DNA from: Nocardioides sp. JQ2195
Lineage (GTDB): Bacteria > Actinomycetota > Actinomycetes > Propionibacteriales > Nocardioidaceae
Direction of reading: 5' to 3'
Length of the DNA: 64,000 nt
NCBI RefSeq assembly: GCF_012272695.1
Contig: NZ_CP050902.1
Coordinates: 1,178,001 to 1,242,000 of the forward strand
Shown here piece by piece: positions 3,371-7,498 of the stretch. The notes below the pieces were generated by a model that saw only the letters and a list, made by a program, of their open reading frames with translations, was not told the DNA's origin and did no database searches. The translations under genes were made by a program, and so were the position numbers. The stretch's first letter is position 1, and each line of letters begins with the position of its first letter.

Positions 3371-4984
3371 GTGACGACGACCGCTGGCGACACCCCCGGG
3401 CAGCAGGCTCCACCCGGGATGCGTGTGGGTGACTACACCCTGCTGGCGCGCATCGGCGAAGGTGGGATGGGCGTGGTCCACCTCGCCCAGAAGCCTGGTG
3501 GCGAGCGGGTGGCGCTCAAGGTCCTGCGCCCCCACGTGGTCAGCGACGACGAGGCGCGTGCCCGGCTGGCGCGCGAGGTCAGCTCGCTGTCCCGGGTGCG
3601 CAGCGCCCGGGTCGGGGAGATCGTCGACGCCGACCCCTGGGGCCCGATCCCGTTCGTGGCCACACGCTACGTCCCCGGCCTCGCCCTCAACGCCCACGTC
3701 CGCGAGGAGGGCGCGTTGCGTGGGGACGACCTGGTCTGGTTCGCGAAGGGTCTCCTCGAGGCGCTGCGGGCGGTGCACCGGGTCGGCGTGCTCCATCGCG
3801 ACGTCAAGCCGTCCAACGTGTTGATGGAAGGACGCAACCCCGTCCTGATCGACTTCGGCCTGGCCCGGTCCGCCGAGGACGCGAGCATCACGCGCACCGG
3901 CTGGTTGCTGGGCACGCCCGGCTACCTGGCACCCGAGATCCTCTACGGCCACACACCGACAGAAGCCGCCGACCTCCACTCGTGGGCCGCGACCGTGGCC
4001 TTCGCCGGCACCGGGCGGCCGCCGTTCGGCAGCGGCCCCTCGGTCGCGGTCATGGACCGGGTCAGGCGCGGCGAGCACGACCTCAGTGGCCTCGACCCGG
4101 AGCTGGTGCGGCTGATCGCGGCAGCACTCGCGCCCGAGCCGTCCGAGCGCCCACGGCTCGAGGAGCTCCTCGACGCCCTCGACGGATCGGCGACCCGGGA
4201 GAGACCGCGGGGCGCGGTGCAGGAACCGGCGACCTTGCCGCTCGCCGGCCTTGATGCCCAGAGCCGACTCGACGGGGACGCCCCGCGCACCCTCCGGTTC
4301 GACGACGAGACGCCCCGGGGTCGTTCGCCGCACACGGACCGCCCGGTGCCGATGCGTGAGCCCTACCAGCAGCCCCCACCCCTGGCCCCGCCCGTGCGGA
4401 CCGGGTGGACCGAGCGCCTGCGCCGGTGGGTCCTGGGCGCGGCTCTCCTCGCAGCAGTCGCCGCCGGGGTCGTGCTGGCGCCCGCCGTGACGTGCGCGGT
4501 CGTCGCCGCCGCGACCGTTGTCCTGCGCAGCCTGTCCCTCTCGAGCAGCGCCGCGCGGGCACGCCGTGAGGCACGAGGTGCCAAGTGGTACGACGGAGTG
4601 CTCGCCGTCGGCTCGGCTCCCTGGCACTTCCTCGTCTCGCTGCCGGGAACCCTCATGCTCCTGGTGTGGACCGCGCTCATCGTCGCGTGCGTGGGGCTGG
4701 TCCTGGTCGCGCTCCGGCTCGATGACCTCGTCGTCCTCGGCGTGAGCGGGTTGGCCCTCGGGGTCTTCCACTGGACCGGCCCCGGCAGCTCACGGCTGCG
4801 TTCGCCGACCTCTGGGGTCGGCAGGGCGCTGGCCCGGGCCACTATGCCGTGGGCGCTCAGCACGCTCCTCCTGCTCGCGTCGGCGGCAGCCATGCTCTGG
4901 GTGGCCGAGGGAGGGGGCACGTCGTGGTTCCCCCTCGACGCCTCCCCCTGGGGCGCGGGCACGTGGCTGGGACGCCACGTCTGA
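3371..4984 (+). CDS. Membrane-anchored Ser/Thr protein kinase (PknB/PknD-like, no PASTA)
   Basis: Hanks-type kinase that phosphorylates proteins on Ser/Thr. Residues 20-270 carry the full set: glycine loop IGEGGMGVVHLA (28-39), ATP lysine K50 in VALKVL, catalytic LHRDVKPSNV (D144), DFG at 161-163 and GYLAPEIL. A proline-rich linker follows, then a C-terminal part with about four hydrophobic helices (from roughly residue 355), so it is a polytopic rather than single-pass receptor and has no extracellular PASTA domains. The GTG start has TAATCT 6 nt upstream (3359-3364), consistent with a leaderless transcript. Signal and substrates unknown. Confidence 0.9.
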   Translation: MTTTAGDTPGQQAPPGMRVGDYTLLARIGEGGMGVVHLAQKPGGERVALKVLRPHVVSDDEARARLAREVSSLSRVRSARVGEIVDADPWGPIPFVATRYVPGLALNAHVREEGALRGDDLVWFAKGLLEALRAVHRVGVLHRDVKPSNVLMEGRNPVLIDFGLARSAEDASITRTGWLLGTPGYLAPEILYGHTPTEAADLHSWAATVAFAGTGRPPFGSGPSVAVMDRVRRGEHDLSGLDPELVRLIAAALAPEPSERPRLEELLDALDGSATRERPRGAVQEPATLPLAGLDAQSRLDGDAPRTLRFDDETPRGRSPHTDRPVPMREPYQQPPPLAPPVRTGWTERLRRWVLGAALLAAVAAGVVLAPAVTCAVVAAATVVLRSLSLSSSAARARREARGAKWYDGVLAVGSAPWHFLVSLPGTLMLLVWTALIVACVGLVLVALRLDDLVVLGVSGLALGVFHWTGPGSSRLRSPTSGVGRALARATMPWALSTLLLLASAAAMLWVAEGGGTSWFPLDASPWGAGTWLGRHV

Positions 4985-5030: not shown

Positions 5031-5666
5031 TCAGGCGTTGGAGACCCGAGGGCCGGGAACCCTGCCCCGGTTGACGGCGGCCATGTGCTCGCCGGCCAGT
5101 CGGCGCAGAGCCGAGAAGATCGGATCGAGCAGCACCAGCGAGGCCGCCAGGGCCTGGGGACGCTCGGCGTCGGGCAGGGAGTCGAGCTCGGCCTGGTCGC
5201 TGCGTGCGACGTGGGCGGCGGCCTCGGCGCAGACCCGGAGCCGGTCCTGGTCGACGTCCAGGCCCACGGAACGGGCCGCCTCGAGGGCGTTCCGGAGCGC
5301 GGGGAGGTGCGGGGAGTCGGGGGCGATGTGCCAGCCCATCTCACGCAGCACGTCGGCATCGGCGGTCCGGTCGTCGAACCGGGTGTCGGCCGGACCGGCA
5401 ATGGCGGCCTGGACCAGCGACACCCTCACGTCAGGGTCTCCGACCGGCAGGTCGATGGCGTCCAGGATCCGTTGGATCTCGGCCAGCGACAGGCGCCCGG
5501 CACCGAGCATCGCGCGAATCAGGCGGAGCCGGGCCAGGTGGGTCTCGTCGTACAACGCCTGGGTGGCGCTGGTGGCGAACCCGGGGTGCAGCAGGCCGGA
5601 GCGGAGATAGAACTTCACGGTACCGACGGGCAACCCGGCGCGCTCACTGAGCTTGCTGATGCGCAT
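5031..5666 (-). CDS. MerR-family transcriptional regulator
   Basis: A 211-residue DNA-binding protein. The N-terminus MRISKLSERAGLPVGTVKFYLRSGLLHPG is a MerR winged helix-turn-helix in which the usual YYE motif reads FYLRSGLL, followed by the Y-DE-HLARLRLIRAML dimerisation helix. The C-terminal ~110 residues form an unassigned effector domain with only one cysteine and no obvious metal motif. It is convergent with the kinase and divergent from the cimA leader; the 138 nt between 5667 and 5804 would contain its promoter and possible operator. Target not evident. Confidence 0.85.
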   Translation of the reverse strand: MRISKLSERAGLPVGTVKFYLRSGLLHPGFATSATQALYDETHLARLRLIRAMLGAGRLSLAEIQRILDAIDLPVGDPDVRVSLVQAAIAGPADTRFDDRTADADVLREMGWHIAPDSPHLPALRNALEAARSVGLDVDQDRLRVCAEAAAHVARSDQAELDSLPDAERPQALAASLVLLDPIFSALRRLAGEHMAAVNRGRVPGPRVSNA

Positions 5667-5804
5667 GGTGGACTTCCTTCACGATGTTGCTGTCGATCGA
5701 CTGATCAAGCCTAGGTCGCAGAACCCGGGTTCCGCAGGCAAATGGGCAGGGTCGCATCGCGAGACACCGGCCACAGGTCGAGGAGTCCGTGTCACACTGG
5801 CGCG

Positions 5805-5834
5805 GTGAGCCACAGCACGATCATCATTGCCTAG
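5805..5834 (+). CDS. Putative isoleucine leader peptide of cimA
   Basis: A nine-codon frame GTG AGC CAC AGC ACG ATC ATC ATT GCC TAG encodes MSHSTIIIA, with three consecutive isoleucine codons just before the end. The -10-like CACACT (5793-5798) lies 6 nt before the GTG and no ribosome binding site is seen, so the transcript may be leaderless. The stop codon runs directly into the first of two perfect hairpins, the second a typical intrinsic terminator. cimA, which makes an isoleucine precursor, follows 83 nt later. This is the classic layout of translation-coupled attenuation; the role is inferred. Confidence 0.7.
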   Translation: MSHSTIIIA

Positions 5835-5885
5835 CGCGTCAGGGTTTCCTGACGCGCAACCTCTCGTTCCTCGAGAGGTTTTTTT
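5834..5885 (+). terminator. Attenuator of cimA: pause-type hairpin plus intrinsic terminator
   Basis: Stem 1 is GCGCGTCAGG (5834-5843) with CCTGACGCGC (5848-5857), 10 perfect pairs around GTTT, beginning at the last base of the leader stop codon. Stem 2 is AACCTCTCG (5858-5866) with CGAGAGGTT (5872-5880), 9 perfect pairs, followed by an unbroken run of T to 5885. That is an intrinsic terminator placed before cimA, so it must be bypassed for expression. A strong antiterminator partner is not obvious; GGTT (5843-5846) can pair with AACC (5858-5861) but weakly. Confidence 0.8.
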
Positions 5886-5917
5886 GTTGCCCGAGCCGAC
5901 CGACGAAGTGAGCTGAG

Positions 5918-7498
5918 ATGGACCTCCAGGGGCCGTTCCACGTCTACGACACCACGATGCGCGACGGCGCGCAGCAGGAGGGGCTGAACCTCTCCGTCGC
6001 CGACAAGCTCACCATTGCCGGCCTGCTCGACGAGCTCGGTGTCGGCTTCATCGAGGGCGGCTGGCCGGGCGCGAACCCGAAGGACACCGAGTTCTTCCGC
6101 CGTGCCGCCGATGAGCTCAGCCTGCAGAACGCCGAGCTGGTCGCCTTCGGCGCGACGCGCAAGGCGGGGGCGGCTGCGGCTGACGACCCCCAGGTCGCCG
6201 CACTGCGGGAGAGCCGCGCGCCCTACGTCACCCTGGTCGCCAAGTCGCACACGCGCCACGTCGAGCTGGCGCTGCGCACCACCCTCGCGGAGAACCTGGC
6301 CATGGTGCGCGACACGGTGGCCCACCTGCGCTCCGAGGGTCAGACGGTGTTCCTCGATGCCGAGCACTTCTTCGACGGCTTCCGCCTCGACCGGTCCTAC
6401 GCGCTGGAGGTGCTGCGCACGGCGTACGACGCCGGTGCCGAGGTGGTCGCGCTGTGCGACACCAACGGCGGGATGCTGCCCCACTGGGTCGGTGAGATCG
6501 TCGCCGACGTGATCGCCGAGACCGGCGGACGGGTCGGCATCCACGCCCACAACGACACGGGTTGCGCGGTCGCGAACTCGGTCGCGGCCGTGCAGGCCGG
6601 GGCCACCCACGTGCAGGGCTGCATGAACGGGTACGGCGAGCGCACCGGCAACGCCGACCTGGTCACCGTGGTCGCGAACCTCGAGCTCAAGCTGGGCCGG
6701 CGGGTGCTCCCGGAGGGTGCGCTGGCCGAGTCCACCCGGATCGCCCACGCGGTCGCCGACATCACCAACTTCCCGCCCGCCTCCCGCCAGCCGTACGTCG
6801 GCACCTCCGCGTTCGCGCACAAGGCCGGCCTGCACGCCTCCGCGATCAAGGTGGACCCGAACCTCTACCAGCACCTCGACCCGGTCGAGGTCGGCAACGA
6901 CATGCGGCTGCTGGTCTCCGACATGGCCGGGCGGGCCTCGATCGAGCTGAAGGGCAAGCAGCTCGGCTACGACCTGTCCGGTGACAAGGACCTCGTCACC
7001 CGCCTGACCAACAAGGTCAAGGACCTGGAGTCGCGCGGCTTCACCTTCGAGGCCGCCGATGCGTCCTTCGAGCTGTTGCTGGTGGAGGAGGCCGAGGGCG
7101 CGCGGCCGTCGTACTTCGACGTCGAGTCGTGGCGGGTCATCACCGAGACGACGCCCGACGACGAGGCAGCCTCCGAGGCGACGGTGAAGCTGCGGGCCGG
7201 GGGAGAGCGGTTCGTGGTGACCGGAGAGGGCAACGGCCCGGTGAACGCGCTCGACCACGCGTTGCGGCAGGCCATCGGCCAGGCGTATCCGGAGGTCGCG
7301 AAGTTCGAGCTGATCGACTACAAGGTGCGGATCTTCGACCAGGGGCACGGCACCGACGCGACCACGCGTGTGCTGATCGAGACGAGTGACGGTGAGTCCT
7401 CGTGGGTGACGGTCGGCGTCGGCCACAACGTGATCGAGGCGTCGTGGGGTGCGCTGGTCGACGGCCTGACGTTCGGCCTGCGGCGTCACCACGTCTGA
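5918..7498 (+). CDS. cimA: (R)-citramalate synthase
   Basis: Condenses pyruvate with acetyl-CoA to citramalate, opening a threonine-independent route to 2-oxobutyrate and isoleucine; LeuCD and LeuB carry out the next steps. The 526-residue protein has the DRE-TIM fold signature YDTTMRDGAQQEGL and the segment FIEGGWPGANPKD that is typical of the CimA branch rather than LeuA, then the metal-binding HAHNDTGCAVANS, and HVQGCMNGYGERTGNADL. The C-terminal ~130 residues form a LeuA-type regulatory domain. An isoleucine-coding leader and terminator precede it, which fits feedback by isoleucine. Confidence 0.93.
   Translation: MDLQGPFHVYDTTMRDGAQQEGLNLSVADKLTIAGLLDELGVGFIEGGWPGANPKDTEFFRRAADELSLQNAELVAFGATRKAGAAAADDPQVAALRESRAPYVTLVAKSHTRHVELALRTTLAENLAMVRDTVAHLRSEGQTVFLDAEHFFDGFRLDRSYALEVLRTAYDAGAEVVALCDTNGGMLPHWVGEIVADVIAETGGRVGIHAHNDTGCAVANSVAAVQAGATHVQGCMNGYGERTGNADLVTVVANLELKLGRRVLPEGALAESTRIAHAVADITNFPPASRQPYVGTSAFAHKAGLHASAIKVDPNLYQHLDPVEVGNDMRLLVSDMAGRASIELKGKQLGYDLSGDKDLVTRLTNKVKDLESRGFTFEAADASFELLLVEEAEGARPSYFDVESWRVITETTPDDEAASEATVKLRAGGERFVVTGEGNGPVNALDHALRQAIGQAYPEVAKFELIDYKVRIFDQGHGTDATTRVLIETSDGESSWVTVGVGHNVIEASWGALVDGLTFGLRRHHV

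What the first reader, a model, noticed from the sequence alone, without database searches (positions are those of the whole stretch)
5793..5890. Isoleucine leader peptide MSHSTIIIA and a textbook terminator in front of cimA
Nine codons with three isoleucine codons (5805-5834) run straight into a perfect 10-bp hairpin and then a 9-bp intrinsic terminator with a T-run. cimA makes an isoleucine precursor, so isoleucine starvation should relieve termination. The RNA lacks an obvious strong antiterminator, so the switch may be unusual, possibly based on the ribosome blocking stem 1 with GCAAC (5856-5860) then free to pair with GTTGC (5886-5890). cimA attenuation by an Ile leader is, to my knowledge, not a standard described element.
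Basis: partly seen in the sequence, partly recalled or inferred. Interest (0 to 1): 0.8.

Follow-up and report, generated by a model that had tools for sequence, protein, structure and literature searches.

The report
Isoleucine-codon attenuator in front of cimA
A nine-codon mini-gene with three isoleucine codons, a fixed RNA stem and a transcription terminator probably let these bacteria switch on an isoleucine-making gene only when isoleucine runs short, and the same scaffold, with other codons in the same slot, sits before leucine and valine genes in many actinobacteria.

Summary
A nine-codon ORF (MSHSTIIIA, 5805-5834), predicted leaderless, ends inside a 10-bp stem (5834-5857), followed at once by an intrinsic terminator (to 5885) and cimA (5918-7498). 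It is present in 122 of 129 testable cimA upstream regions of the genus (window included), degenerate in one, absent from six; outside the genus in 34 of 77 cimA loci (Kribbella, Nonomuraea, Amycolatopsis and others). Both stems covary. In 154 of 155 elements the last Ile codon lies 5 nt before stem 1; it is ATT in 112 of 121 genus elements, against 1 of 458 Ile codons in 28 cimA genes. A covariance model of the element finds the same scaffold before ilvB, leuA, leuB and leuS, with the matching amino acid in the codon slot. I found no antiterminator: no candidate pairing co-evolves, and a folding test that recovers the E. coli trp antiterminator finds none here. I read it as an Ile-tRNA-sensing ribosome-mediated attenuator, a variant without an antiterminator; how the stalled ribosome stops termination is unproven.

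The parts
5793..5798 (+). predicted -10 hexamer CACACT, placing the transcript start at the GTG (leaderless)
   Evidence: 121 of 121 script-found genus elements have an in-frame ATG/GTG with a [TCG]ANNNT hexamer at -12..-7 (+-1); other frames 5 and 2 of 121; with no tolerance 71 against 2 and 1. No start site was measured.
5805..5834 (+). leader ORF MSHSTIIIA, GTG start, TAG stop overlapping stem 1
5820..5828 (+). Ile codons ATC ATC ATT; the last ends 5 nt before stem 1
   Evidence: spacing 5 nt in 154 of 155 elements; last Ile codon ATT in 112 of 121 genus elements
5834..5857 (+). stem 1, 10 bp, loop 5844-5847
   Evidence: changes on both sides at 7 of 10 pairs among 96 aligned elements
5858..5885 (+). 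intrinsic terminator, 9-bp stem 5858-5880 and T-run to 5885
   Evidence: changes on both sides at 7 of 9 pairs
5918..7498 (+). cimA, citramalate synthase, the gene taken to be regulated
   Evidence: TIGR00977 above cut-off

Best explanation
An isoleucyl-tRNA-sensing, ribosome-mediated transcription attenuator of cimA. Transcription starts at the leader's GTG and a ribosome translates the leaderless ORF (inferred from a conserved -10 box). With isoleucine plentiful it passes the Ile codons, opens stem 1 at the stop, leaves, and the terminator ends transcription before cimA. With charged tRNA-Ile scarce it stalls at the Ile run, whose last codon is usually the rare ATT, with its leading edge against stem 1; RNA polymerase then reads through. 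Because no alternative RNA pairing was found, I think the stalled ribosome acts directly: the folded stem 1 reels it up to the terminator (0-2 nt beyond the stem) so that the terminator hairpin cannot form at the RNA exit channel. Shown: anatomy, conservation, fixed geometry, covariation, codon-to-gene match, absence of an antiterminator signal. Inferred: start site, translation, stalling, read-through, the steric step. The confidence is for Ile-controlled attenuation; for the steric step alone I give 0.35-0.4.
For: Element in 122 of 129 testable genus upstream regions (121 by script; L111 by eye). 14 of 19 pairs have changes on both sides, 195 such cells against 36 in shuffles, 0 of 500. Last Ile codon 5 nt from stem 1 in 154 of 155, while stem 1 runs from 22 to 54 nt (sd 5.7) and stem end to terminator centre is 13.3, sd 0.69. 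A second search without any reward for Ile codons or short gaps (0-15 nt allowed) finds 152, all among the 155, with a gap of 0-2 nt in 148 and the 5-nt spacing in 141. Codon-to-gene match in TAG-anchored leaders: cimA Ile 34 of 40 slots, ilvB Val/Leu/Ile 180 of 184, leuA Leu 13 of 16, leuB Ile/Val 15 of 16. Last Ile codon ATT 112 of 121 against 1 of 458 in 28 cimA genes. Leaderless start. Precedent: in Mtb ilvB1, LVVI changed to AAAA left the reporter low and independent of the inducing drug (PMC13236596, passages).
Against: No expression data. The textbook part that links stalling to read-through, the antiterminator, is not found, so that link is unproven. The element is dispensable: six genus members lack it, and of the 77 GTDB loci 43 lack it by the script, 33 of them titled as actinobacterial. 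The 5-nt spacing is not universal: 8 nt by eye in one genus of 6-10-Mb genomes, about 7 nt by eye in this genome's ilvB and leuS leaders. By linear distance a ribosome on the ORF never reaches the terminator. PMC1262725 reports that substituting possible regulatory codons before the S. coelicolor ilv operon had no effect.
Confidence: 0.78

Rival explanations
1. Classical trp-type attenuator: ribosome stalling frees RNA that pairs with a terminator arm (antiterminator).
For: Supported for C. glutamicum ilvBNC (PMC11857589) and proposed for Mtb ilvB1 (PMC13236596). With 7 nt of stem 1 masked, 25 of 155 elements have the terminator 5' arm engaged elsewhere in more than half the ensemble. Kribbella L003 has a stem-1 loop CCCGCA complementary to its terminator arm TGCGGG (by eye).
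Against: No candidate pairing co-evolves: z between -0.9 and +3.2 against -23.6 and -18.0 for the two stems; on 46 ilvB elements five pairings give -0.5 to +3.3 against about -11; no extra helix in covariation. The folding measure gives 0.62 (Trp stall) against 0.01-0.06 (stop) for E. coli trp, but medians of 0.06-0.31 (last-Ile stall) against 0.30-0.31 (stop) here, and 24-27 of 155 exceed half at the stop too.
Confidence: 0.15
2. Kinetic model: stem 1 is a polymerase pause hairpin that synchronises polymerase and ribosome; the ribosome's arrival or absence sets polymerase speed or factor binding at the terminator.
For: Stem 1 occupies the place of the trp 1:2 pause hairpin (recalled); PMC11857589 proposes a pausing role for the apex of its H1 hairpin (section read). 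The base GCGC of stem 1 is nearly invariant while the rest covaries, as if the sequence itself mattered.
Against: Does not predict the fixed 5-nt and 0-2-nt spacings. No pause site was tested.
Confidence: 0.2
3. Composite terminator: stem 1 is needed for termination, and the stalled ribosome simply prevents stem 1 from folding.
For: Stem 1 sits 0-2 nt from the terminator in 152 of 155 elements, 148 of 152 when up to 15 nt are allowed; a 26-nt footprint centred on the last Ile codon, the estimate used in PMC13236596, would cover about 7 nt of stem 1.
Against: The window's terminator alone is strong (-13.8 kcal/mol); a ribosome at the stop would open stem 1 too.
Confidence: 0.15
4. No amino-acid sensing: a chance short ORF in front of an ordinary terminator.
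For: Terminator-like sites occur at about 0.7 per 3 kb by chance.
Against: Conservation, in-frame leaderless start, fixed spacing, codon-to-gene match; the last same-strand gene upstream, a kinase-like ORF, ends at 4984, and the ORF between (5031-5666) is on the other strand.
Confidence: 0.03

Closest known systems
Leader peptides of actinobacterial ilvB operons (Seliverstov 2005, PMC1262725; S. lividans IlvL, PMC8079986; Mtb ilvB1, PMC13236596)
   Same: Short ORF, leaderless in S. lividans, with branched-chain codons and an intrinsic terminator. [quoted passage not shown] This genome's own ilvB leader has the same shape by eye.
   Different: Gene is cimA and the codons are isoleucine only. 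The ORF ends in stem 1; PMC1262725 has the ilvB ORFs overlapping the terminator. An antiterminator is proposed for Mtb ilvB1, none found here.
ilvB-II motif of Corynebacterium (PMC10272879)
   Same: Two stems P1 and P2, P2 a terminator, leader ORF, branched-chain codons.
   Different: There the ORF spans most of P1 and the P1 loop pairs with the right shoulder of P2; that pairing is not supported here (z -0.65).
leuS leaders (PMC1262725, PMC8079986)
   Same: Leu codons, hairpin, terminator; this genome's leuS leader is found by the cimA model.
   Different: Different amino acid and gene; PMC1262725 marks antiterminator hairpins there.
E. coli trp attenuator
   Same: Ribosome senses tRNA charging upstream of a terminator.
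   Different: Has a 2:3 antiterminator, seen by the test that finds none here; its leader ORF is not leaderless (recalled).

Membership tests
Ribosome-mediated (leader-peptide) transcription attenuators, broad sense | Short ORF with codons of the pathway's amino acid at the control position | tested here: met
Ribosome-mediated (leader-peptide) transcription attenuators, broad sense | Intrinsic terminator between the leader and the gene | tested here: met
Ribosome-mediated (leader-peptide) transcription attenuators, broad sense | The leader is translated and read-through rises on starvation | not testable with these tools
   needs reporters or ribosome profiling; only the in-frame start and leaderless promoter were tested
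Classical trp-type attenuator | Mutually exclusive antiterminator helix | tested here: not met
   the co-evolution test was not run on a set with a known antiterminator, so its power is unknown
ilvB-II motif | P1 loop pairs with the right shoulder of the terminator | tested here: not met
   z -0.65, z -0.48 for ilvB elements of this scaffold
ilvB-II motif | Leader ORF spans most of P1 | tested here: not met
   ORF ends at the first base of stem 1 in the window and in 138 of 155, at stem nt 11 in 13 others
LEU element (leuA) | Leu-codon ORF with pseudoknot | tested here: not met
   the codons are Ile; the pseudoknot itself was not tested
T-box or other Rfam RNA | Match to a covariance model | tested here: not met
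   no match up to E 5

The most novel reading that the evidence does not exclude
A phylum-wide modular attenuator without an antiterminator. One RNA scaffold (codon slot, NNN-TA, stem 1 beginning at the G of TAG, terminator 0-2 nt later) is reused before cimA, ilvB, leuA, leuB and leuS, with the slot codons exchanged to suit the gene. Stem 1 acts as a reel that brings the stalled ribosome against the terminator, so the ribosome itself, not an alternative RNA fold, prevents termination.
Probability: 0.33. Interest if true: 0.78.

Novelty: new variant of a known kind. Interest (0 to 1): 0.6.

Why it matters
It would give cimA, the entry enzyme of the citramalate route to isoleucine, a control by isoleucyl-tRNA that I found in no held paper. 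It also suggests that many actinobacterial branched-chain leaders share one scaffold with interchangeable codons. The 2005 survey noted that components of attenuators are missing in many actinobacterial cases; this element, small, strictly spaced and conserved, makes the question of how such attenuators work testable with a few reporter mutants.

Tried and rejected
1. GCAAC/GTTGC switch: 11 of 155 elements. That is more than in swapped pairs (mean 5.1, 2 of 500 as high), but 5 of the 11 are Amycolatopsis and one (L011) is a different pairing. Rejected as the general switch.

2. Equilibrium terminator probability after masking stem 1 (0.92-0.97) looked like proof that no antiterminator exists. 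The E. coli trp control gives 0.84-0.86 in every state, so the measure is not diagnostic and I dropped it. The measure kept asks whether the terminator's 5' arm is engaged before its 3' arm is made.

3. By eye, CGAGA/TCTCG and CGGGA/TCCTG in Nocardioides suggested a pairing of stem 1's distal 5' half with the terminator 5' arm. The swap test gave z -0.17. Rejected.

4. The first element finder rewarded Ile codons, allowed only 0-5 nt between the stems, and its stem start was then set to the G of TAG where the stem had been extended. Repeated without these: 152 elements, same picture. The first alignment A1 misplaced terminator arms by one base; models were built from A2 and A3. Automatic anchoring failed for many loci and was replaced by TAG-anchoring.

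5. Rows dropped: of the 134 genus genomes with CimA, four were not fetched (G030, G036, G082, G092; G016's second copy also not) and L110 has only 50 nt upstream. L111 was cut wrongly at first and added by eye, so it is not in the 155. L049, L052, L068 lack the gene start. Swap tests used 144 distinct of 155, covariation 151. Codon slots were counted for the 69 of 90 phylum hits with a TAG anchor; one, the leuS hit L311, is mis-anchored and its slot not meaningful. Of 123 phylum hits listed, the 31 weaker than E 2.3e-4 and one at a contig end were not fetched.

6. Alternative helices: the ten best covarying column pairs lie in the two stems; the next are other pairs within the terminator arms or neighbouring columns, without the pairing excess of a helix except 4.8-4.2, both in one terminator arm.

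Full report
OBSERVATION. The RNA from the GTG to 5890 folds far better than shuffles (z -5.5); its centroid is two adjacent hairpins, stem 1 (5834-5857) and a terminator (5858-5880, T to 5885). The gene behind it is cimA (TIGR00977). It lies near leuB and ilvE, with a MerR-like ORF on the other strand between (5031-5666). Rfam has nothing here.

CONSERVATION. In 147 genomes of the genus, 134 have a CimA match at E 1e-150. I had usable upstream DNA for 129, the window's own included. A script found the element in 121; L111 has it too, L122 has a degenerate form with one Ile codon and a broken T-run, and six lack it (L166, L173, L176, L177, L204, L211). Of 77 loci with usable upstream DNA from the GTDB collection the script found it in 34, among them Kribbella, Nonomuraea, Amycolatopsis, Kutzneria, Pseudonocardia, Cellulomonas, Demequina and two MAGs titled Acidimicrobiaceae and Ilumatobacteraceae. 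The other 43 lack it: 33 are titled as actinobacterial, 8 are other bacteria, 2 are untitled. A second search that gives no credit for Ile codons or short gaps finds 152, all among the 155. On 96 aligned elements, 14 of 19 pairs show changes on both sides, 195 such cells against 36 in shuffles, 0 of 500. The alignment was fitted to the model, but versions slid by 1-3 columns fall to 26-68% paired, against 97%. The base of stem 1 (GCGC with GCGC) is nearly invariant.

GEOMETRY. In 154 of 155 elements the last Ile codon ends 5 nt before stem 1 (the other, L003, is a one-base shift); without the anchor rule it is 141 of 152. Stem 1 varies from 22 to 54 nt (sd 5.7), yet its end lies 13.3 nt (sd 0.69) from the terminator centre; 0-2 nt separate the stems in 148 of 152 when 0-15 are allowed, and in 39 of 46 ilvB elements when 0-10 are allowed. 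So the distance through the folded stem is held, not the linear distance. The stop codon is less strictly placed: TAG overlapping stem 1 in 138 (TAGC in 137); in the 16 true exceptions it is at stem nt 11, about the end of the 5' arm, in 13. With the last Ile codon in the A site, stem 1 would begin at mRNA position +12 counted from the P site, next to the ribosome's helicase site (position recalled, not from a call).

LEADERLESS START. In 121 of 121 genus elements an in-frame ATG or GTG has a -10 hexamer [TCG]ANNNT at -12..-7 (+-1), against 5 and 2 of 121 in the other frames; without tolerance 71 against 2 and 1. Outside the genus it is 27 of 34 against 3 and 1. In the window this is CACACT 5793-5798 and GTG 5805. 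A start site was not measured. Leaderless leader peptides were reported in S. lividans (PMC8079986, passages).

CODONS. Within the genus the last Ile codon is ATT in 112 of 121 leaders, while 28 cimA genes of the genus have 1 ATT in 458 Ile codons and seven window ORFs taken as genes 3 in 95. Outside the genus the last is ATT in 14 and ATC in 19. In the phylum set, slot codons are ATT 44% of Ile (9% in the matched downstream genes), GTA 42% of Val (2%), CTT 40% of Leu (5%). The models were built on ATT-containing leaders, so the ATT figure there is biased; GTA and CTT are not.

ONE SCAFFOLD, SEVERAL GENES. Model R2, built from cimA leaders, was run on 396 genomes of the phylum with stricter filters: 107 have a hit at E 0.01, 123 hits in all. 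I fetched those down to E 2.3e-4 except one at a contig end, 91 with the window. By tblastn with this genome's proteins, the 90 others precede ilvB (52), cimA (22), leuB (4), leuA (2, plus L241 and L298, which match CimA at only 27-32% and carry Leu codons, so I count them as leuA), leuS (2) and none of these (6). Where a TAG anchor could be set (69 of 90), the slot of four codons fits the gene: cimA (n 10) Ile 34 of 40; ilvB (n 46) Val 87, Leu 64, Ile 29 of 184; leuA (n 4) Leu 13 of 16; leuB (n 4) Ile 10 and Val 5 of 16. A model trained on Ile codons thus finds Leu and Val leaders at the right genes. Of the 12 cimA hits without TAG, 11 come from one unnamed genus of 6-10-Mb genomes, perhaps Streptomyces, with a longer stem. 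In this genome the model also finds the leuS leader; the ilvB leader, MHKQLLVCTRRVS with CTT CTT GTA, has the same plan by eye but was not found by it.

NO ANTITERMINATOR. Swapping arms between elements, the real partners are far better than swapped ones for stem 1 (z -23.6) and for the terminator (z -18.0), but for none of nine other pairings among leader, stem 1 and terminator arms (z -0.9 to +3.2). The 46 ilvB elements give the same picture for five pairings. In column covariation the ten best pairs are all in the two stems. With ribosome masks that show the E. coli trp antiterminator (0.62 on the Trp codons, 0.01-0.06 at the stop), the cimA elements show no rise on the Ile codons over the stop (medians 0.06-0.31 against 0.30-0.31); individual elements exceed 0.5 in 2-25 of 155 on the last Ile codon and 24-27 at the stop. 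Against this reading: the power of the swap test on a known antiterminator was not tested, and relatedness affects it.

MECHANISM. Shown by sequence: leader, codons, geometry, terminator, gene match. Inferred: translation, stalling at low Ile-tRNA, read-through. For the last step I favour direct action of the ribosome. On the linear RNA no ribosome on this ORF can reach the terminator; with stem 1 folded, a ribosome halted on the last Ile codon stands against stem 1, and the terminator begins 0-2 nt behind that stem. This explains why the two short spacings are fixed and the stem length is free. That ribosomes can prevent terminator hairpins is stated in the abstract of PMC5021804 (seen in a search listing). 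The rivals (hidden antiterminator, pause hairpin, composite terminator) make different predictions for stem 1 deletion, start-codon loss and spacer length.

WHAT IS KNOWN. PMC1262725 (abstract and results section) describes ilvB, leuS, cys and trp leaders, the leuA LEU element and ileS T-boxes in actinobacteria, and no conserved structure for other pathways. PMC8079986 (passages) lists eight S. lividans leaders, none for cimA in what I saw. PMC10272879 (abstract and results) and PMC11857589 (abstract and two sections) treat Corynebacterium ilvB; PMC13236596 (passages) treats Mtb ilvB1; PMC2965389, PMC11109978, PMC8632094 and PMC4833913 were searched for terms. Searches naming cimA or citramalate and general ones listed nothing that I recognised as a cimA attenuator; some searches showed only part of their hits, and the library holds open-licence papers only. 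Verdict: real and conserved; new in gene and codon among leader-peptide attenuators, and a variant in that no antiterminator is found.

Noticed in passing
L213 (G000:C1:2705868-2705954, minus strand), outside the window: leuS leader MPQRFLLRQPR with CTT CTT, stop inside a stem, then a terminator: same plan as the cimA leader.
   Followed up: partly
L245, about 200 nt upstream of ilvB, outside the window: ilvB leader MHKQLLVCTRRVS (CTT CTT GTA) with stem and terminator of the same plan, missed by the cimA model.
   Followed up: partly
L249, upstream of leuA, outside the window: Leader MKMRSLLLRCRSEA with Leu codons and no obvious terminator, as in the known LEU element (by eye).
   Followed up: no
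L166, L173, L204, L211 (of six genus members without the element): The cimA start itself lies 9-10 nt behind a -10-like hexamer, as if cimA had become leaderless when the element was lost (by eye).
   Followed up: no
L028, L093, L101, L104: In some Nocardioides the terminator is CCTCCTG..CAGGAGG-TTTTTT-CATG, so its 3' arm reads as a Shine-Dalgarno sequence before an ATG; in L028 that ATG is out of frame with cimA (by eye).
   Followed up: no
cimA leaders of Nonomuraea, Amycolatopsis, Kutzneria and others (among L006-L047): Second stop class: the leader runs four codons further and stops at stem nt 11, about the end of the 5' arm (13 elements).
   Followed up: partly
L050, L051 (Nitriliruptoria MAGs): Ile-codon leaders before cimA with a different stem and no clear terminator (by eye).
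   Followed up: no
13 of 147 genus genomes: No CimA match at E 1e-150; how they make isoleucine was not examined.
   Followed up: no
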